From a bacterium (GTDB lineage Bacteria; Sysuimicrobiota; Sysuimicrobiia; Sysuimicrobiales; Segetimicrobiaceae), in contig DATGHU010000047.1 in the NCBI GenBank assembly GCA_035307765.1, positions 1 through 46,884 on the forward strand: a stretch of DNA of 46,884 nucleotides, in the 5' to 3' direction. Both the position numbers and the translations under genes were made by a program. Under the pieces are notes generated by a model. That model made no database searches. It saw only the letters and a list, made by a program, of their open reading frames with translations, and was not told where the DNA came from. This document shows positions 13,428-22,702 of this stretch, one piece after another. The first letter of the stretch is position 1. Each line of letters opens with the position of its first letter.

Positions 13428-15782
13428 ATGAGCGAATCTGGCATCACCCTTCCGGCGTTCGGCAGGGTCGAGTCCACACTGCTGTGGCTCGTCTTCGCCG
13501 CCGGACTATGCGCCCTCGCCTACGGGTGGTGGCTGATTCGCGGCGTCCTCCGGCGGAGCCCGGGTCCGGCGTCGATGCAAGAGGTGGCCGCCGCCATCCA
13601 GGAAGGCGCCCACGCCTACTTGGGACGGCAGTTCCGGACGATGTCGGCGTTCATCCTGGCGATTACGGTTGCCCTCTACGCCCTCTATCGTCCGATCTAC
13701 TCGAACCCCGTCCTCGCCGTCGGGGTTGCCCTGGCGTTTCTCTTCGGCTGCCTGGCGAGTTACGGGGCGGGGTACGTGGGCATGAACCTCGCGGTGCGCG
13801 GCAATGTCCGGACGGCGTTCGCGGCGACCCGCAGCTTCAAGGAAGCTCTGGAAACCGCCTTCCACGCGGGGACGGTGTCCGGCATGTTCACGGTCGGCCT
13901 GGGCCTGCTCGGGGCGACGGCGATCTTCGTGCTCTTCCGCGGAGACGCCACCCGGGTGCTCATCGGCTTCGGGTTCGGAGGATCCCTCGTGGCGCTGTTC
14001 ATGCGCATCGGCGGCGGCATCTACACGAAAGTGGCCGATGTCGGTGCCGACCTCGTGGGCAAAGTCGAAGTCGGCATCCCCGAGGACGATCCCCGCAACG
14101 CGGCGACGATCGCGGACAACGTCGGCGACAACGTCGGCGACTGCGCGGGGATGGCGGCCGACGTCTTCGAGTCCTACGAGGTCACCCTGGTGGCGGCGAT
14201 CATCTTGGGCGCAGGCACGCTCCTCGACCCGCGCTTCCGCGCGCTCTACGGGGGACACGCCTCGGCCTTCGCCCTCAAGCTGATCTTGTTCCCGCTGCTC
14301 GTCCAGGGGGTCGGCGTGTTCGCCTCGATCCTCGGCACCCGGTTCGTTCGAGTAAAGAGCGACGAGATCAGTGATCCGATGCGCCCCATCAACACGGGGT
14401 TGTGGATCTCCGCGGTGGCCGCGGTGGTGGGCTTCAGCGCGGTCAACGCCGCGTACCTGACCGACCCGAACACCGGCGCGGTGGATTGGCGGTTTTCCTT
14501 CGCCACGCTCACCGGTCTCGTCTTGGCGCTCGTCATCAAGTGGCTGACCGATCAGTATACGAACCCGGCGCGTCGGCCGGTCACCGAGATGGCGTACTCA
14601 ACAAAGACGGGACCGGCGACATTCCTGCTGTCGGGGCTGGGGTTCGGCCTGGAGTCCTCGGTGTGGGCGATCCTCGCGGTCGCCGCCACCATTCTCGCGT
14701 CGTTCACCATCTTCCAGGGGGATTTGGCCCTGGCCGGATACGGGGTGGCGCTCGCCGGGTTGGGACTCCTCAGCGTGACGGGCTACATCCTCGCCATGGA
14801 CACCTTCGGACCGATCGTCGACAACGCCAACGGTATCGTGGAAATGTCCGGCGCGGACGGGCGGGGCCACAGCGACCTCGCGACGCGGGTCGTGGCACAG
14901 CTGGATCAAGCCGGCAACACGACAAAGGCACTGACCAAAGGGTTCGCCATCGCCACCGCGGTGATCGCGGCCACCGCGCTCTTTCGATCGTTCGCGGACC
15001 AAGCCCAACTCACCGCCTCGGCCGATGCCCTCCGCCAGACGCTGGCCGCGGGGGGCGCGTCCGCGACCGCAGCGCTCGACCGGGTGGGGATTCAGGTCAA
15101 CCTCCCCCTCATCTTCATCGGGCTCCTGATCGGCGGCGCCGTCCCGTTCCTGGTCTCGGCGTTCCTGATCCGGGCGGTGGGGCGGTCGGCGTTCGAGGTC
15201 GTGGAGGAAGTCCGCCGCCAGTTCCGCGAGATCCCCGGCATCATGGAGGGCAAGGCGAAACCGGAGTACCACCGCTGCGTCGATATTGTCACCCGCGCGG
15301 CACAGCGGGAACTCCTCTCCCCCGCGATCATCGCGATCGCCGCCCCGATTATGGTCGGATTCGGATTGGGGGCCGCCCCGCTCGGGGGCTTTCTGGCCGG
15401 CGCGATCCTCACCGGGCAACTGCTGGCGGTGTACATGGCGAACACCGGCGGGGCCTGGGACAACGCCAAGAAGAAGATCGAGGACGGGTTCCTGGGGGGG
15501 AAGGGCACCGAATACCATAAAGCGGGCGTTATCGGCGACACGGTCGGCGACCCGCTGAAGGACACCGCCGGCCCGGCCCTCAACCCGCTGATCAAGGTGA
15601 TGAATCTCGTGAGCCTCCTCATCGCGCCGGTGGTGATCGCCCCGCTGGGTTGGGCGGTCCGCGGCACGATCGTGGCGGTGGCCGTGGTCCTGATGGCCGT
15701 CGCCGTCGCGGTGAACCGGCGGAGCGCGGTGACGCCCGAGGACATCGAGGCGGCGGCGCGGATGCCGGCGAGGGCGCAGTGA
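13428..15782 (+). CDS. hppA: Membrane-bound proton-translocating pyrophosphatase, K+-independent type
   Basis: This integral membrane enzyme couples PPi hydrolysis to H+ export; 784 residues, about 16 helices. The catalytic loop reads GGGIYTKVADVGADLVGK, then EVGIPEDDPRNAATIADN and VGDNVGDCAGMAAD, with all usual acidic PPi/Mg ligands. A second motif is DNANGIVEMSG. GNTTKALTKG (about 496-505) has K where K+-dependent enzymes have A, and T where they have G, so a K+-independent H+ pump is predicted. DTVGDPLKDTAGPALN occurs near the C-terminus. The SD AAGGAGG precedes ATG 13428. The stop overlaps the histidine kinase start as GTGA, which is unusual for this gene. Confidence 0.95.
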   Translation: MSESGITLPAFGRVESTLLWLVFAAGLCALAYGWWLIRGVLRRSPGPASMQEVAAAIQEGAHAYLGRQFRTMSAFILAITVALYALYRPIYSNPVLAVGVALAFLFGCLASYGAGYVGMNLAVRGNVRTAFAATRSFKEALETAFHAGTVSGMFTVGLGLLGATAIFVLFRGDATRVLIGFGFGGSLVALFMRIGGGIYTKVADVGADLVGKVEVGIPEDDPRNAATIADNVGDNVGDCAGMAADVFESYEVTLVAAIILGAGTLLDPRFRALYGGHASAFALKLILFPLLVQGVGVFASILGTRFVRVKSDEISDPMRPINTGLWISAVAAVVGFSAVNAAYLTDPNTGAVDWRFSFATLTGLVLALVIKWLTDQYTNPARRPVTEMAYSTKTGPATFLLSGLGFGLESSVWAILAVAATILASFTIFQGDLALAGYGVALAGLGLLSVTGYILAMDTFGPIVDNANGIVEMSGADGRGHSDLATRVVAQLDQAGNTTKALTKGFAIATAVIAATALFRSFADQAQLTASADALRQTLAAGGASATAALDRVGIQVNLPLIFIGLLIGGAVPFLVSAFLIRAVGRSAFEVVEEVRRQFREIPGIMEGKAKPEYHRCVDIVTRAAQRELLSPAIIAIAAPIMVGFGLGAAPLGGFLAGAILTGQLLAVYMANTGGAWDNAKKKIEDGFLGGKGTEYHKAGVIGDTVGDPLKDTAGPALNPLIKVMNLVSLLIAPVVIAPLGWAVRGTIVAVAVVLMAVAVAVNRRSAVTPEDIEAAARMPARAQ

Positions 15783-17446
15783 GGAAAGGATCCCGCCTCC
15801 CGGCGCCGGCGCTCGATGTCCGGGAGCAACTGGCCCGGAAGGCCGCGGAGATCTCGGCGCTGCGCGAGATCAGCCGGACGATCAGCGAGGCCACCGACCT
15901 CGATAGCACGCTCACCCTGATCACCCGCAAGACGGCCGAGGTCATGCGGATGGACAGTTGCTCAATCTACCTCCTCGACACCCCGCGCGAGTACCTCGTG
16001 CTCAAGGCGACCACCGGGCTCGCCGCCGAAGCGATCGGCCGCGGCCGCCTCCGTCTCGGCGAAGGGCTGACGGGGTGGGCGGCGCAGACAGGGCAACCCG
16101 CCGCCTCCGCCAACGCGCCGGCGGACCCCCGCTTCAAGTACGTCCCGGGGACCCACGAGAACCGGTTCCATTCGCTTCTGGCGGTGCCCCTGGCAACGGG
16201 CGGAAAGATCGTCGGAGCGATCAACGTGCAGACGACCGGCACGCACGAGTATCACGAGGACGAGGTCGAGCTGCTCAGCATCATCGCGGATCTGGCGAGC
16301 GGGGCGCTGGAAAAGGCCCGGCTCTACGACAGCATGCGGCGTCAGATCATGGAGCTCAGCACGCTTGCCGAAGTCAGCGAGACGCTGACCTCGCCGCTCT
16401 ACCTCGAACAGATCCTGCGTCTTCTGGTGGAGATGGCGAGCCGCGTCTTCGAAGCCCGCCTCTGCACCCTGATGCTGCTCGATGGGGACGAGCTGCGCCT
16501 GGCGGCGGAACACCCCGAGAGCGAGCGGCCGCGGATGCGGCAGGCGCTTCGGATCGGCGACGGCATCCCGGGAGAGGCGGCCGCTTCCGGCCAGCCCGTC
16601 TGGAGCCTCGACCTCGACACCGATCCCCGGTTCCACCCTCAGCTGCTGCCCGAAGGGACCGCGGCCGGATCCGTGCGATCCATGCTCTCGGTGCCGCTGC
16701 GGGTGCGGGACCGCACGCTTGGGGTCGTGAGCTGCTATACCGGGCGACGCCATGCCTTCTCGCAGAACGAGATCAACCTGCTGCAAACGCTGGCGAACCA
16801 AACCGCGCTCGCGATCGAGAACGCCGGGCTGGTGGTGAAATCGGCGATGGTCCGCGAGATGCACCACCGCGTCAAGAACAACCTCCAGATGATCGCGATG
16901 CTCCTCAGGCTGCAGATGCGCGACGGCCGCGAGGTGTCCGGCCGGGAGGTGCTCACGGAAACGATCAACCGCATCCTCAGCATCGCGGCGGTGCACGAAA
17001 TCCTTGGGGCCGAGGGTCTGCGCCAGGTGACGGTGCGCACGATGCTGGAACGGGTGGTGCACACGGTCACGCAGACGATGGCGCCGCCGGGGTTTGCGCT
17101 CGACGCCCGGATCGAAGGCGACGACCTGAGCCTGCCGAGCCATCAGGCCACGTCGCTGGCCCTGGTGGTCAACGAACTGCTGCAGAATGCGATGGAACAC
17201 GCCTTCCCCGGCCGGTCGGCGGGCCGGGTCGTCATCACCCTCAGCGAGGGCCGCGACGAGATCCGGGTGGAGGTGCGGGACGACGGGGTGGGGCTCCCCG
17301 ACGGCTTCTCCCCCAGCCGGTCGGCGGATCTCGGGCTGCAGATCGTCCAGACCCTTGTGCAGGACGACCTCAAGGGTCGCCTTTCGCTGACCAACGCCCG
17401 CGGAGTACGCGCCGCGATCACGATGCCCCGCGCCGCGGGGAGCTGA
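15779..17446 (+). CDS. Soluble sensor histidine kinase, GAF-GAF-HisKA_2-HATPase
   Basis: This 555-residue cytoplasmic kinase has no transmembrane helix. Two GAF domains occupy about 25-185 and 195-345, each with the GEGLTGWAA / GDGIPGEAA-type turn and SLLAVPL / SMLSVPL strand. The phosphorylation helix is REMHHRVKNNLQM (H363 the likely site), typical of HisKA_2/HWE-like kinases. The ATP domain has the N-box NELLQNAMEH (about 464) and DDGVGLPDG (about 500). GTG 15779 is chosen because it overlaps the hppA stop (GTGA) and the preceding sequence is inside hppA. Kinases of this type usually pair with ANTAR regulators, and one follows three bases downstream. The GAF ligand is unknown. Confidence 0.9.
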   Translation: MRKGSRLPAPALDVREQLARKAAEISALREISRTISEATDLDSTLTLITRKTAEVMRMDSCSIYLLDTPREYLVLKATTGLAAEAIGRGRLRLGEGLTGWAAQTGQPAASANAPADPRFKYVPGTHENRFHSLLAVPLATGGKIVGAINVQTTGTHEYHEDEVELLSIIADLASGALEKARLYDSMRRQIMELSTLAEVSETLTSPLYLEQILRLLVEMASRVFEARLCTLMLLDGDELRLAAEHPESERPRMRQALRIGDGIPGEAAASGQPVWSLDLDTDPRFHPQLLPEGTAAGSVRSMLSVPLRVRDRTLGVVSCYTGRRHAFSQNEINLLQTLANQTALAIENAGLVVKSAMVREMHHRVKNNLQMIAMLLRLQMRDGREVSGREVLTETINRILSIAAVHEILGAEGLRQVTVRTMLERVVHTVTQTMAPPGFALDARIEGDDLSLPSHQATSLALVVNELLQNAMEHAFPGRSAGRVVITLSEGRDEIRVEVRDDGVGLPDGFSPSRSADLGLQIVQTLVQDDLKGRLSLTNARGVRAAITMPRAAGS

Positions 17447-17449
17447 TCG

Positions 17450-19219
17450 ATGGCCGACGCGATGCGCATCCTCATCGCCGACGACGAGCCCGTCATCCGC
17501 ATGGGCCTCAAGACCATGCTGGAGGAACACGGGTACAAGGTCGTCGGCGAAGCCCCGGACGGCGAGCAAGCGGTGACGCTGGCGGGGAAGAGCAACCCCG
17601 ACCTGATCTTCATGGACATCAAAATGCCCGGGCTGGACGGGATCGCGGCGGCCTCCACGATCATGGCCCGATCGCCGAAACCGATCATCCTCCTCACCGC
17701 GTGGAGCGAGCGCGACCTCGTGCAGCGAGCACAAGAGGCTGGGGTCCTCGCCTACCTGGTAAAGCCCGTGCGCGAAACCGAACTCATCCCGGCGATCGAG
17801 GTCGCCATCGCCCGCTTCCAGGAGCTTCGCGCGCTCCAGCAGGAGGTCGGCACCCTCAAGGACACCCTGGAGACCCGGAAACTCGTCGAGCGGGCCAAGG
17901 GGATCTTGATGAAGCGCGAAGGGGTCGACGAGCAAGAGGCGTTTCTGCGCATCCAGCAGCAGAGCCGCAACACCCGCACGGCGATGCGGGAAATCGCCAG
18001 GGCCATTCTCGTCTCCGATGAGATGCGCCGGCATTCGACCCCGCCGACCTCCGGGCGGGTCGAGGTGCGGACGCCGGCGGATCTCCTGCGGGTGTTCTGC
18101 GGCGTCCGGATCCTCCCGGGGGCGCCCGGGGCGACCGACCTCTCGGTGTCGGGGATAGACCCGCTGGCCTATCTCTCGTTGGGGCCCGGGACCGAGGTGA
18201 CCGTGGAAGGCTATGTCACCAGCCGGACCGAGGACGGGGAGTACGGCCTCGGCATCGGCTTTGGGATCGCGCCCAGCCCGCAGGCGGGAGAGAGTGAGGG
18301 CGTGGTGATGTGCGTGATCCAGAACGCCCTCCGCCCCGGCGCGTTGACCGCGGGCGGGACGGCCCACAGCGCCTACGCGCAACCGCTCGACGAGGTCATG
18401 GCCACCCAACAGCAGGTCACGGTCACCGGCCTGCTCCGCCTGATGCCCGACCAAGCCTCGGCGGGACATTCGATCCTCCCCCACCTGCTGGAGATCCATC
18501 CGGTGCGGAGCGTCACGACCGAACGCGGCCTGACCTTGCCGGCCATCTCCCTTGATGCGCCCGGTGGCCCCGAGTGGACCGAGGTGGAGACGGTCCACCC
18601 CATGCCCTTCGGCGACTTTTCGCCGCACACCCATATTGGGGTCATGGGGACGGTGCTGACGTTCCGCGAAGTCCCCCCGCTTGAGACGGCGTACGTGTAC
18701 ATGACCGGGCGGTTCCTCGGGGGGCGGAGCCAATTCGTCGAGGGACGGCCCTTCCTGTTCGCGTTCGGAGACGCTGCGGGTCGGATTCGGATCACCGCGG
18801 CCACCATCCCCGGGACCCCTGCCTACGAGGTCTCGCGGCGGTGGCTGTCCTCGCCGCCGACCGGACCGATGACGGTGGTCGGGCTACGCACATTCAACCT
18901 CCCCGCGCTGTTTGCGCCGGGCGGCGGGCGGGTGGAGGTGGTGCTCTGCCCGGTGTTCCGCATCTTCCCGGGAACGATCCGAGGCTCCTCCGCACCCGCG
19001 CCCACCGCGCGGTTCGAACTGATCCCCATCGGCGGCGAGCCGTCCATCAGCGAAGATGGCTCGCGTTCGGCCCGGCGCGGAAAGGCGAAGCGCCCCGGCA
19101 AGAAGCGCGCACGAACCGGGGCCGCCAAACCGCGGACGGCCAAACCCCACGCCGCCCAGAAGCGGCCCGGCGCACGGTCGGGACGCGGGCCCAAGGCCCG
19201 GGCGCGGAAACGCCCCTGA
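17450..19219 (+). CDS. ANTAR response regulator with a large novel C-terminal extension and basic tail
   Basis: The 589 residues divide into three parts. Residues 1-125 form a receiver domain with D11, D12, phospho-acceptor D56 (FMDIKMPG), T83 and K105. Residues 128-187 form an ANTAR RNA-binding domain (LVERAKGILMKREGVDEQEA... AMREIARAIL), which in known regulators binds hairpins and prevents termination. Normal ANTAR regulators end near 200. Here a beta-rich region (203-530) follows with repeated strand-like segments such as TEVTVEGYV, QQVTVTGLL, HIGVMGTVL and PMTVVGL. A tail (about 537-589) is dominated by K, R, A, P and G, like histone H1 tails. I do not recognise the middle region; OB-like folds are a guess. 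The frame is continuous, with no sign of a frameshift. It is the partner of the kinase three bases upstream. Confidence 0.88.
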   Translation: MADAMRILIADDEPVIRMGLKTMLEEHGYKVVGEAPDGEQAVTLAGKSNPDLIFMDIKMPGLDGIAAASTIMARSPKPIILLTAWSERDLVQRAQEAGVLAYLVKPVRETELIPAIEVAIARFQELRALQQEVGTLKDTLETRKLVERAKGILMKREGVDEQEAFLRIQQQSRNTRTAMREIARAILVSDEMRRHSTPPTSGRVEVRTPADLLRVFCGVRILPGAPGATDLSVSGIDPLAYLSLGPGTEVTVEGYVTSRTEDGEYGLGIGFGIAPSPQAGESEGVVMCVIQNALRPGALTAGGTAHSAYAQPLDEVMATQQQVTVTGLLRLMPDQASAGHSILPHLLEIHPVRSVTTERGLTLPAISLDAPGGPEWTEVETVHPMPFGDFSPHTHIGVMGTVLTFREVPPLETAYVYMTGRFLGGRSQFVEGRPFLFAFGDAAGRIRITAATIPGTPAYEVSRRWLSSPPTGPMTVVGLRTFNLPALFAPGGGRVEVVLCPVFRIFPGTIRGSSAPAPTARFELIPIGGEPSISEDGSRSARRGKAKRPGKKRARTGAAKPRTAKPHAAQKRPGARSGRGPKARARKRP

Positions 19220-19284: not shown

Positions 19285-19653
19285 GTGGAGGACGCCATCC
19301 GAGCCCTGGCCGAACCGCGCCGGCGCGTGATCCTGCGCCTCGTCTACGACACCGAGCTCTCGGCCGGCCAGATCGCCTCGCACTTCGATGTCACCCGGCC
19401 GGCCATCTCTCAGCACATCACGGTTCTTAAGCACGCCGGCCTGATCACCGAGCGGAGGGCGGGCACCCGCCGCCTGTACCGGGCCCGCCCGGAAGGGCTG
19501 GAAGAGCTGCGCGAGTTCCTGGAGGGTTTTTGGGACCACAAGCTCGACCTGCTCAAGCACGCCGCGGAGACCGAGGAAAGGGAGGCCGAACGGCATGACC
19601 ATCGACGAGGCCACCGTCATCAGGCGCGTGATCCGCATCGCGGCACGCCCTGA
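19285..19653 (+). CDS. ArsR-family winged-helix regulator
   Basis: This 122-residue ArsR/SmtB-type repressor starts MEDAIRALAEPRRRVILRLV, the usual family start, so GTG 19285 is firm. The winged helix contains SAGQIASHFDVTRPAISQHI and VLKHAGLITERRAGTRRLYR. No metal-binding cysteine pair is seen, so it is probably not a metal sensor. The last ~20 codons overlap the next gene and look low in complexity (HDHRRGHRH...). It is paired with an SRPBCC (AHSA1-like) protein, a common arrangement. Autoregulation through the promoter palindrome is inferred. Confidence 0.88.
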   Translation: MEDAIRALAEPRRRVILRLVYDTELSAGQIASHFDVTRPAISQHITVLKHAGLITERRAGTRRLYRARPEGLEELREFLEGFWDHKLDLLKHAAETEEREAERHDHRRGHRHQARDPHRGTP

Positions 19654-20071
19654 GACCGTCTTTACCTTCTTTACGGACCCGAAAAAGATGGTGCGGTGGA
19701 AGGGGCGGCAGGCCACCCTTGACCCGCGAATCGGGGGGACCTACAGGGTCGACATCAACGGACGGAACATCGCCCTGGGGGCATTCGTGGAAATCGTCCC
19801 ATATCGGCGCGTGGTGTTTACCTGGGGCTGGGAAGGAGACGGACCTCCCGTGCCGCCTGGTTCTTCGACCGTCGAAATCACGCTCGCCCCGGACGGCGAC
19901 GGGACGATCCTCACATTGATCCACCGCGATCTGCCCGCGCCTACGCGCGAGGCGCACGCCCACGGATGGGAGCACTATCTGGCCAGGCTGGCGGACGCCG
20001 CGGCCGGCCGAGACCCAGGGCCGGACCCGTTGGCGACGCCTCCCGTCTCCGCGGGCGGCCCCGGGGAGTAG
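19595..20071 (+). CDS. SRPBCC (AHSA1-like) domain protein
   Basis: This 158-residue protein matches the AHSA1/START-like fold: VIRIAARPETVFTFFTDPKKMVRWKG, then IGGTYRVDINGRN and the signature VEIVPYRRVVFTWGW, with TLIHRDLP and HAHGWEHYLARL at the end. These small proteins bind hydrophobic ligands or act as Hsp90-activator relatives. The ATG lies 59 bases inside the end of the arsR frame, so translation is coupled. The role is unknown; ArsR-SRPBCC pairs are frequent. Confidence 0.85.
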   Translation: MTIDEATVIRRVIRIAARPETVFTFFTDPKKMVRWKGRQATLDPRIGGTYRVDINGRNIALGAFVEIVPYRRVVFTWGWEGDGPPVPPGSSTVEITLAPDGDGTILTLIHRDLPAPTREAHAHGWEHYLARLADAAAGRDPGPDPLATPPVSAGGPGE

Positions 20072-20183
20072 CCCCACCCGGCGAGAGGAACCCGGCCCGC
20101 GTCCCGGGACCGCGGATGTTATCGATTCGTCACACGCGTTCGGAATATGTTGATGGTACAAATCGCAAAAGGAGGAATCACCG

Positions 20184-20549
20184 GTGCCCAGAGTGGTGCA
20201 TTTTGAGTTGGCCGCGGACAACCCCGAGCGGGCCGCGAAATTTTACGGTCAGGTATTTGGGTGGAAGATCACCAAATGGGAAGGGCCGGAGGACTATTGG
20301 CTCGTCACGACCGGCGACGACAAGCAGCCCGGCATCAACGGAGGCCTGATGCGCCCGAGGGGACCGCAGAAGGTCGTGAACACCGTCGACGTTCCCTCGG
20401 TCGATGAATTCACGGCGAAGATCACGAAGAACGGGGGCAAGATCGTCGCGCCGAAGATGGCCATCCCCGGCGTCGGCTATCTGGCGTACTGCCAGGACAC
20501 CGAGGGCAACGCGTTCGGGATCATGCAGTCGGACGAAACCGCCAAGTAG
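20184..20549 (+). CDS. VOC-family (glyoxalase/dioxygenase-fold) protein
   Basis: This 121-residue single VOC protein has the paired beta-alpha-beta-beta-beta modules: VVHFELAADNPERAAKFYGQVFGW at the start and IPGVGYLAYCQDTEGNAFGIM at the end. GTG 20184 follows AAAGGAGG by about 9 bases. A putative metal site may use H6 and the late glutamate region, but this is not certain. Such proteins include antibiotic-binding and glyoxalase-like members; the function here is unknown. Confidence 0.85.
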   Translation: MPRVVHFELAADNPERAAKFYGQVFGWKITKWEGPEDYWLVTTGDDKQPGINGGLMRPRGPQKVVNTVDVPSVDEFTAKITKNGGKIVAPKMAIPGVGYLAYCQDTEGNAFGIMQSDETAK

Positions 20550-20570
20550 CGGATGCGAGGAGGAATGACG

Positions 20571-21044
20571 ATGGACGAACGGACGCTGCTCCAGCAACAA
20601 CTCGCCGGCAGCCACCAGGCCGTCCGGTACGCCCTGAGCGAGGTCTCCGACGACGATGCGCGCCGGATGCCGCACTCGGCGCTGTCCCCGGTGATCTGGC
20701 AGGTGGGACACCTGGCGCTCACCAACGCGAACTTCAGCCGGCGCGCCGGCGTCACGCCCGGGTCGGCGCTGCCGGCGACGTACGCGGATCTGTTCAAGAG
20801 CGGGACCGGTGGGAAGGCTGAGTACCCCCCCCTCGCTCAGATCGTCCAGGCCTTCGACGACAGCCACGAGGCCCTGGTGCGAGTGGTGGCGGAGGCAAAC
20901 CTTGACGCCGCGGATGAGGGCCCCCGAGGGCTCTGGAAGAACTACGCGGGGATGTTCAACTTTGCGAACGCGCACCGGTGGTACCACATCGGGAAAATCA
21001 TGTCATTGCGGGCGCTCCTCGGGAAACCGCGCCTCTTTGGATAG
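20571..21044 (+). CDS. DinB-family (DinB_2) protein
   Basis: This 157-residue four-helix protein of the DinB/YfiT type has likely metal histidines in WQVGHLALTN and ANAHRWYHIGKIMSLR. ATG 20571 (MDERTLL) is preferred because AGGAGG (20558-20563) is seven bases upstream, while the ATG at 20565 is too close to it. DinB proteins include thiol-dependent transferases and many unknowns. It probably shares a transcript with the VOC gene. Confidence 0.82.
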   Translation: MDERTLLQQQLAGSHQAVRYALSEVSDDDARRMPHSALSPVIWQVGHLALTNANFSRRAGVTPGSALPATYADLFKSGTGGKAEYPPLAQIVQAFDDSHEALVRVVAEANLDAADEGPRGLWKNYAGMFNFANAHRWYHIGKIMSLRALLGKPRLFG

Positions 21045-21108: not shown

Positions 21109-21137
21109 TTGACTTCCCCTCGTGCGCATGGTATAAA
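21109..21137 (+). promoter_or_regulatory. Promoter of glnA
   Basis: TTGACT (21109-21114), a 17-base spacer and TATAAA (21132-21137) form a good sigma-70 promoter. The predicted start is near 21144, giving a 116-base leader. Confidence 0.75.
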
Positions 21138-21161
21138 AATCCCGTAGTGAATAGCGGTACC

Positions 21162-21207
21162 GGGGGCCATGACGCCTCCCGGGCGCTCAGCGCTCGGGGG
21201 GCTTTTT
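21162..21207 (+). promoter_or_regulatory. Possible transcription attenuator in the glnA leader
   Basis: CCTCCCGGGCGC (21175-21186) pairs with GCGCTCGGGGGG (21190-21201) through 12 bp including two G-U pairs. A T-run (21203-21207) follows, which makes an intrinsic terminator upstream of the glnA start. GGGGGC (21162-21167) can instead pair with GCCTCC (21174-21179), and that use of the 5' arm excludes the terminator. This is a terminator/antiterminator layout. Confidence 0.55.
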
Positions 21208-21259: not shown

Positions 21260-22702
21260 ATGGCTGGTAAGGATATGACCGCACGCGAGGTGGTCGCGTA
21301 CATCAAAGAGCACGGCATCAAGATGGTGGATCTGAAGTTCGTGGACGTTCCGGGCACCTGGCAGCACACCACCATCCCGGCCAGCCAAGTGGACGAGAGG
21401 ACGTTCTCGCGGGGCATCGGGTTCGACGGCAGCAGTATCCGCGGTTTTCAGGCGATTCAGGAAAGCGACATGCTGTTGATGCCCGACCCGACGACGGCGC
21501 GTCCCGACCCCTTCACGGAGATCCCGACGCTGTCGGTCATCTGCAACGTCAACGACCCGGTCGCCGGAAAGCCGTATTCGAGGGATCCGCGGTATGTCGC
21601 GCAAAAAGCTGAGGAACACCTCAAAGCGTCTGGCATCGCGGACACGAGCTACTGGGGGCCGGAAGCGGAGTTCTTCGTGTTCAACAACGTGCAGTACGAG
21701 GTCCTCCCGCAGCGCATGGGATACAGCATCGACTCCACCGAGGCGACGTGGAACTCGGGGCAGCCCGGGCTGGCCAATCGAATGCGGGTCAAGGAAGGCT
21801 ACTTTCCCGTCCCGCCGGCGGACACCATGCTCGACCTCCGCAGCGAGATGACGCTGGAGATGGAGAAGTGGGGGATCGAGGTGGAGATGCAGCACCACGA
21901 GGTCGGTCACGCCGGACAGGGCGAGATCGACATGAAGTACAATACCCTCGCCAGAACCGGGGATAGCTTGTTGGGGTACAAGTACATCGTCAAGAATGTC
22001 GCGCGCCGCCACGGGATGACGGCGACGTTCATGCCGAAGCCCCTGTTCGGAGACAACGGGACGGGAATGCACACCCACCAGAGCCTCTGGAAGGGCGGCC
22101 AGAACATCTTCTACAGCGAGGGCGGGTACGCCGAGCTCAGCCAGGAGGCCCTCTACTACATCGGCGGACTGCTCACCCACGTCGACGCGCTCCTCGGGCT
22201 GTGCGCGTGCACCACCAACTCCTACCGGCGGCTGGTCCCGCACTATGAGGCCCCGGTCAACATCGCCTTCAGCCAGCGCAACCGCAGCGCCGCGGTCCGC
22301 ATCCCGATGTACTTCTCCGGCCCGGCGGCGGCGACGAGCAAGCGGATCGAGTTCCGGTGTCCGGACGCGACCGCCAACCCTTACCTGGCCTTCGCCGCCC
22401 AGCTGATGGCCGGGATGGACGGGATTAAGCGGAAGATCGACCCGCGGAAGGCGGGGTTTGGCCCGATGGACAAGAACACCTACGAACTGGAGCCCGAGGA
22501 GGCCGCGAAGATCAAGAGCGTGCCCGGATCGCTGGGGGCGGCGCTGAATGCGCTCGAAGCCGACCATGAGTTTCTCCTGGAGGGGGATGTCTTCACCCGG
22601 GACCTGCTCGACACGTGGATCGACTATAAGCGCACGAGGGAACTCCACGAGGTAAACATCCGGCCGGTGCCCTACGAGTTCTTCCTGTACTACGACGTCT
22701 AG
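21260..22702 (+). CDS. glnA: Glutamine synthetase, type I
   Basis: This enzyme makes glutamine from glutamate, ammonia and ATP; 480 residues. MAGKDMTAREVVAYIKEHGI at 21260 is taken as the start, with GGAGGA just before it. Motifs: GFDGSSIRGFQ, EAEFFVFN, the metal/substrate segment with HHEVGHAGQGEID, NGTGMHTHQSLWKGG, and the ATP/glutamate site around RNRSAAVRIP. NTYELEPEEA keeps the tyrosine at the adenylylation position of GSI-beta enzymes; whether it is modified is unknown. The gene has its own promoter and a possible attenuator, so nitrogen control through antitermination is plausible. Confidence 0.96.
   Translation: MAGKDMTAREVVAYIKEHGIKMVDLKFVDVPGTWQHTTIPASQVDERTFSRGIGFDGSSIRGFQAIQESDMLLMPDPTTARPDPFTEIPTLSVICNVNDPVAGKPYSRDPRYVAQKAEEHLKASGIADTSYWGPEAEFFVFNNVQYEVLPQRMGYSIDSTEATWNSGQPGLANRMRVKEGYFPVPPADTMLDLRSEMTLEMEKWGIEVEMQHHEVGHAGQGEIDMKYNTLARTGDSLLGYKYIVKNVARRHGMTATFMPKPLFGDNGTGMHTHQSLWKGGQNIFYSEGGYAELSQEALYYIGGLLTHVDALLGLCACTTNSYRRLVPHYEAPVNIAFSQRNRSAAVRIPMYFSGPAAATSKRIEFRCPDATANPYLAFAAQLMAGMDGIKRKIDPRKAGFGPMDKNTYELEPEEAAKIKSVPGSLGAALNALEADHEFLLEGDVFTRDLLDTWIDYKRTRELHEVNIRPVPYEFFLYYDV

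What the first reader, a model, noticed from the sequence alone, without database searches (positions are those of the whole stretch)
17450..19219. ANTAR response regulator three times the normal length, with an unknown beta-rich region and a histone-like basic tail
Seen: an intact receiver (D56, K105) and ANTAR domain end by about residue 190. About 340 residues of beta-rich sequence follow, with recurring strand-like segments (TEVTVEGYV, QQVTVTGLL, HIGVMGTVL, PMTVVGL), and a ~53-residue K/R/A/P/G tail. Known: ANTAR regulators are normally ~200 residues and act by RNA hairpin binding. Inference: the extension may be an extra nucleic-acid-binding or scaffold module, making a phosphorylation-controlled protein that could touch RNA and DNA.
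Basis: partly seen in the sequence, partly recalled or inferred. Interest (0 to 1): 0.75.

Follow-up and report, generated by a model that had tools for sequence, protein, structure and literature searches.

The report
ANTAR antiterminator with lineage-specific OB-type extension
A soil-bacterium regulator that probably switches on glutamine synthetase by binding an RNA hairpin carries, unlike its relatives, a conserved extra module that resembles single-strand nucleic-acid-binding proteins, so one family seems to have added to a known kind of RNA switch; what the extra part does is untested.

Summary
ORF 17450-19219 (589 aa) is an intact receiver plus ANTAR protein, followed by a ~330-residue extension and a ~60-residue basic tail. 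The fusion is not an assembly error: it occurs in all 12 genomes held of its family (Segetimicrobiaceae, Sysuimicrobiota) and is under purifying selection. Orthologues in the sister families checked stop 2-15 residues after ANTAR.

The extension matches no Pfam, NCBIfam or PHROG family. Its first half (residues 237-365) gives a low-confidence model whose best PDB matches are almost all OB folds (SSB, Asn/AspRS, YgiW, PriB, MCM). A sequence profile independently puts archaeal MCM OB first (E = 0.023). The second half is beta-rich and unassigned. Only the basic composition of the tail is conserved.

The glnA leader (window 21109-21207) has a promoter and a G4 hexaloop overlapping an intrinsic terminator. 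The architecture is present in 12/12 family genomes, and at glnA or amt in sister families that lack the extension. So the ordinary ANTAR part probably controls nitrogen genes, and the extension is a later add-on.

Most likely it is a second RNA grip on the nascent leader, but this is inferred. New variant of a known kind.

The parts
15650..17446 (+). Sensor histidine kinase GAF-GAF-HisKA_2-HATPase, presumed cognate kinase; stops 3 nt before the regulator. True start is downstream of 15650 (the ORF overlaps hppA).
   Evidence: Pfam; orthologue directly upstream of the ANTAR gene in families f1-f7 wherever the upstream sequence was compared
17468..17797 (+). Receiver domain, residues 7-116 (D11, D12, D56, T83, K105)
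   Evidence: Pfam; residues
17855..18010 (+). ANTAR domain, residues 136-187
   Evidence: Pfam; EutV structure match 4e-42 with the G4-reading residues kept
18047..18157 (+). Conserved leading segment of the extension (RTPADLLRV...), residues 200-236
   Evidence: alignments
18158..18544 (+). OB-type domain, residues 237-365
   Evidence: AF2 model pLDDT 56.8, pTM 0.55; Foldseek PDB hits nearly all OB folds; profile hit to MCM OB, E = 0.023
18587..19015 (+). Second conserved beta-rich region, residues 380-522; possible second OB fold, not proven
   Evidence: conserved across the family; no PDB profile hit of weight; strand pattern only
19037..19216 (+). Basic low-complexity tail, residues 530-589
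   Evidence: composition conserved (17-27 K/R, 0-4 D/E in 51-69 residues), sequence not
21109..21137 (+). Conserved promoter of glnA, TTGACT-17-TATAAA
   Evidence: alignment of family leaders
21142..21157 (+). P1 hairpin of the glnA leader; degenerate in this genus (8-nt loop), a true hexaloop in genera g2-g4
21160..21180 (+). P2 hexaloop hairpin CCGGGGGC-CAUGAC-GCC.CCCGG (G at loop position 4)
   Evidence: R1 model hit at 21155-21179, weak on its own
21171..21207 (+). Intrinsic terminator, mutually exclusive with P2
   Evidence: 11 family leaders fold together; 6 of 15 pairs show compensatory change
21260..22702 (+). glnA, glutamine synthetase, presumed regulated gene
   Evidence: Pfam; syntenic in the family

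Best explanation
This is the response regulator of a GAF-GAF-HisKA_2 kinase/ANTAR pair that works by transcription antitermination on the nearby glnA leader: when phosphorylated and dimeric, its ANTAR domain holds the G4 hexaloop hairpin, so the overlapping terminator cannot form and glutamine synthetase is made. In Segetimicrobiaceae only, the protein gained an OB-type module, a second beta-rich module and a basic tail. The most likely role of these is to hold single-stranded nascent RNA next to the hexaloop (or RNA at the polymerase exit), strengthening or prolonging antitermination. Shown by computation: the domain order, its conservation and lineage restriction, the hexaloop/terminator leader, and an OB-like model of one domain. 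Inferred: phosphorylation control, binding of this protein to this leader, and the RNA-gripping role of the extension.
For: Receiver and ANTAR intact. Of the EutV hexaloop contacts, R142, K143, K149, E160, N173 and R175 are identical, K147 is R and Y164 is F. The glnA leader has promoter, G4 hexaloop and overlapping terminator in 12/12 family genomes; over all families 24 of 37 glnA upstream regions pass a strict test against 1.3 expected from shuffles. Six terminator pairs show compensatory change. The same hexaloop-terminator unit precedes amt directly downstream of an ANTAR gene in three f4 genomes and precedes the second ANTAR gene of the own genome. Extension: conserved in 12/12, purifying selection; OB-like model; MCM-OB profile hit; conserved basic tail.
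Against: Sister families carry the same leader and an ANTAR protein without extension, so the extension is not needed for hexaloop recognition and could do something unrelated. The OB assignment rests on a low-confidence model (no Foldseek E below 0.001) and sub-threshold profile hits. The extension itself is not basic (pI 5.7-8.6). Loop position 1 is C or U, not the A reported for EutV, NasR and AmiR targets, and EutV R168, M172 and R177 are not kept. P1 is degenerate in the window's own genus. A second ANTAR protein in the genome could be the one that reads the leader.
Confidence: 0.5

Rival explanations
1. The extension is a protein-interaction platform: OB-type barrels dock onto RNA polymerase, NusA, glutamine synthetase or a PII protein and report nitrogen status or tether the antiterminator, without touching nucleic acid.
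For: OB folds often bind proteins (general knowledge); the extension is neutral to acidic; its most invariant stretches are loops (RPGxLxAGGTAxSxY, PDxAS) rather than basic patches; glnA is syntenic.
Against: The basic tail is kept in all members; the best structural neighbours are mostly nucleic-acid binders.
Confidence: 0.25
2. The extension and histone-like tail bind DNA, making a phosphorylation-controlled protein that also acts at promoters or on the nucleoid.
For: H1-like K/A/P/R tail; SSB and MCM are DNA binders among the neighbours.
Against: No DNA site or DNA-binding family detected; tail sequence is unconstrained beyond charge, which fits non-specific RNA or DNA contact equally.
Confidence: 0.12
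3. The extension is a ligand-sensing beta module giving a second input to the regulator.
For: Sensory additions to regulators exist (general knowledge); the module is very conserved (81% mean column identity).
Against: No known sensor domain matched; the kinase already carries two GAF domains.
Confidence: 0.08
4. The fusion is an assembly or gene-calling artefact, or a decaying read-through.
For: None found beyond the lineage restriction.
Against: Same fusion in separately assembled genomes from different soils; low pN/pS.
Confidence: 0.01

Closest known systems
EutV (E. faecalis, PDB 6wsh/6ww6) and Rv1626 (PDB 1s8n): receiver-ANTAR response regulators
   Same: Receiver-ANTAR order, 4e-42 and 9e-59 matches over the first ~190 residues, HisKA_2 kinase partner as in EutW (from my own knowledge), G4 contacts kept, target is a hexaloop overlapping a terminator
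   Different: Those end at about 192-205 residues; this one has ~400 more residues; loop position 1 of the target is C/U rather than A
SSB / MCM N-terminal OB domains
   Same: Predicted barrel topology and best structural and profile neighbours of residues 237-365
   Different: Below significance in sequence; the MCM_OB Pfam model does not match anywhere in the genome; no MCM or SSB context
NasR, AmiR and other ANTAR proteins with added domains
   Same: ANTAR combined with a further module
   Different: There the added module is a sensor or pseudo-receiver placed before ANTAR (from my own knowledge); here uncharacterised beta modules follow it

Membership tests
ANTAR response regulators (EutV/Rv1626 type) | Receiver with phospho-acceptor Asp and conserved Lys | tested here: met
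   Pfam; D56, K105, T83, D11/D12
ANTAR response regulators (EutV/Rv1626 type) | ANTAR domain above curated cut-off | tested here: met
   70.5 bits against 27.3
ANTAR response regulators (EutV/Rv1626 type) | Residues that read loop G4 (EutV R142, K149, E160, aromatic 164) | tested here: met
   R143, K150, E161, F165 here
ANTAR response regulators (EutV/Rv1626 type) | Binds dual hexaloop RNA and antiterminates | not testable with these tools
   A candidate target is present in the glnA leader; binding needs experiment
ANTAR target RNA | Tandem hexaloop hairpins, A at position 1 and G at position 4, P2 overlapping a terminator | tested here: inconclusive
   G4 and overlapping terminator met; two hexaloops met in genera g2-g4 but P1 degenerate in g1; A1 not met
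OB-fold nucleic-acid-binding domain | Five-stranded barrel topology with helix between strands 3 and 4 | tested here: inconclusive
   Predicted order b-b-b-a-b-b and OB neighbours, but pLDDT 56.8 and best Foldseek E 0.024
MCM_OB (PF17207) | Match to the family model | tested here: not met
   No match in the genome at E up to 10; only a sub-threshold profile hit, E = 0.023

The most novel reading that the evidence does not exclude
A two-component-controlled antiterminator with more than one RNA-binding module: ANTAR chooses the leader by its hexaloop and the OB modules plus tail then hold the nascent RNA or the polymerase, giving stronger or processive antitermination of glnA in one family of an uncultivated phylum.
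Probability: 0.25. Interest if true: 0.7.

Novelty: new variant of a known kind. Interest (0 to 1): 0.5.

Why it matters
Well-studied ANTAR regulators with a receiver are minimal two-domain proteins. Here is a family in which a nucleic-acid-type module was added after ANTAR and then strictly kept, while sister families show the ancestral form on the same kind of RNA target: a natural before/after pair. The hexaloop-terminator leaders at glnA and amt also give this uncultivated phylum a concrete, testable nitrogen-control circuit and suggest that loop position 1 is not essential, while G4 is.

Tried and rejected
Whole-extension AF2 model (pLDDT 31; Foldseek meaningless). Internal repeat test of the two halves by hhalign: no detectable relation. 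Distant homologues of the extension in 386 genomes: only chance matches outside the family (a stretch overlapping enolase on G074, a polymerase-like ORF away from any OB region, an ABC protein). MCM_OB search of the own genome and plasmid search with an MCM segment: nothing. Rfam on the window: nothing. Strict A1/G4 dual-hairpin scan of the neighbourhoods: only scattered hits; the leader was found by aligning glnA upstream regions instead. The P2 motif alone (GGSCCNNGACGCC) is not enriched genome-wide (29 against 44 for the reversed control), so it means something only in leader-plus-terminator context. Model R1 matches in sister genomes inside coding sequence (L111-L117) were discarded.

Full report
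CHECK OF THE OBSERVATION. The ORF at 17450-19219 (+) encodes 589 residues. Pfam finds a receiver (residues 7-116) and an ANTAR domain (136-187) and nothing after them; NCBIfam gives only receiver matches among those shown. The acidic pair D11/D12, D56, T83 and K105 are present. The first 199 residues match the solved proteins Rv1626 (1s8n, 9e-59) and EutV (6wsh, 4e-42) end to end. The extension is residues 200-529 and the basic tail 530-589.

IT IS A REAL, FIXED FUSION. All 12 genomes of the same GTDB family (f1) held here carry it (one genome has it split over two contigs). Reading the loci gives complete proteins of 580-598 residues with the same order. Named records from the search for related loci are soil metagenome genomes; the name 'Terrabacteria group bacterium ANGP1' resolves to Candidatus Segetimicrobium genomatis, family Segetimicrobiaceae, phylum Sysuimicrobiota. 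Between the window and eight complete relatives the extension has pN 0.13-0.22 against pS 0.46-0.58, so its amino acids are constrained; the tail has lost sequence similarity but keeps 17-27 K/R and 0-4 D/E. In sister families of the same order, ANTAR proteins 48-67% identical end 2-15 residues after the domain, and the kinase gene lies upstream there too. So the extension was added to (or less likely lost from all others around) an old kinase/ANTAR pair.

WHAT THE EXTENSION IS. No Pfam, NCBIfam or PHROG family matches. A profile search of 386 genomes finds no significant relative outside the family. AF2 on the whole extension with 8 sequences is poor (pLDDT 31). Residues 237-365 alone give pLDDT 56.8 and pTM 0.55, with order strand-strand-strand-helix-strand-strand. 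Foldseek against the PDB then lists mostly OB-fold proteins among the 50 shown (mycobacterial and other SSB, Asn- and Asp-tRNA synthetases, Cdc13 OB2, YgiW, PriB, MCM chains), the best at E 0.024, probability about 0.9; none is below 0.001. Independently, the sequence profile of the same region has archaeal MCM N-terminal domains as its only PDB matches at E up to 10 (best E 0.023). Neither line is significant by itself; together they make an OB-type domain likely. Residues 380-522 are equally conserved and look beta-rich, but no method assigned a fold and no repeat relation to the first half was detected.

THE LIKELY RNA TARGET. glnA lies 2 kb downstream of the regulator and stays close to it across the family. 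Aligning glnA upstream regions showed a conserved TTGAC/TATAAA promoter followed at once by a conserved leader. In genera g2-g4 the leader is GGUAC-NNNGAN-GUACC, two bases, GGGC-CNNGAC-GCCC: two hexaloop hairpins with G at loop position 4; the second overlaps an intrinsic terminator. The terminator is supported by six pairs with compensatory change in 11 sequences. In the window's own genus the second hairpin and the terminator are kept (window 21160-21207) but the first hairpin has an 8-nt loop or is unclear. A covariance model from six leaders found the held-out glnA leader of G006 at 7.6e-10, but only a weak match in the window (E 0.24). With a strict test (4-bp stem, G4 hexaloop, overlapping terminator), 24 of 37 glnA upstream regions of the order pass, 12 of 12 in f1, against 1.3 expected from dinucleotide shuffles; the sequences are related, so this is conservation rather than 37 independent tests. 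In f4, three genomes (G025, G028, G031) have two such hexaloops, with terminator-like repeats, in the leader of an ammonium transporter gene placed directly after an ANTAR gene. The own genome's second ANTAR gene has the same unit in its leader.

MECHANISM. Published EutV work shows that a phosphorylated dimer holds hexaloops and so prevents the terminator; the only base-specific contact is G4, through R142, K149, E160 and Tyr164 (PMC8934654; PMC3369931). The equivalents here are R143, K150, E161 and F165. The ANTAR part is therefore expected to do the same on the glnA leader. Position 1 of the loop is C or U here, not the A described for EutV, NasR and AmiR targets, a real deviation. What the extension adds is inferred: an OB-type domain after an RNA-binding domain, plus a conserved basic tail, most simply means more grip on nascent RNA. 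Because sister families manage the same leader without it, it must tune rather than create the switch, or serve a separate task such as docking to polymerase or a nitrogen-metabolism protein.

LITERATURE. Full-text searches found no paper describing an ANTAR protein with an OB-type module (one search returns only unrelated papers) and no report of these glnA leaders (judged from titles and abstracts). The library is partial, so absence is weak evidence. ANTAR targets at nitrogen genes (glutamate synthase, nitrogenase) in other phyla were predicted before.

VERDICT. It is a new variant of a known regulator kind; the main gain is a before/after pair of families and a concrete RNA target on which to test the extension.

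Noticed in passing
window 21109-21207, and glnA upstream regions in families f1, f2, f4, f5, f6: Conserved glnA leader with promoter, G4 hexaloop and overlapping terminator across the order; no Rfam match in the window.
   Followed up: yes
L043, L045, L047 (first ~180 nt after the ANTAR gene): Ammonium transporter leaders with two GGGC-C[AG]GGAC-GCCC hexaloops and terminator-like repeats, directly downstream of an ANTAR gene in family f4.
   Followed up: partly
L162 6100-6220, minus strand (own genome, contig C13): The second ANTAR regulator gene of this genome has its own hexaloop-terminator leader, suggesting auto- or cross-regulation.
   Followed up: partly
G041:C23, G020:C9, G028:C1, G031:C10: ANTAR genes lie next to glnA (f6) or to amt and glnA (f4), pointing to nitrogen control across the order.
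   Followed up: partly
window 19285-21044: ArsR regulator, SRPBCC, glyoxalase-like and DinB-like ORFs sit between the regulator and glnA; this insert varies among relatives.
   Followed up: no
L005 (G004), C-terminal end of the regulator: The basic tail ends in an atypical sequence (...SPSPAWYKLTGD), perhaps a frameshift at the end of the gene.
   Followed up: no
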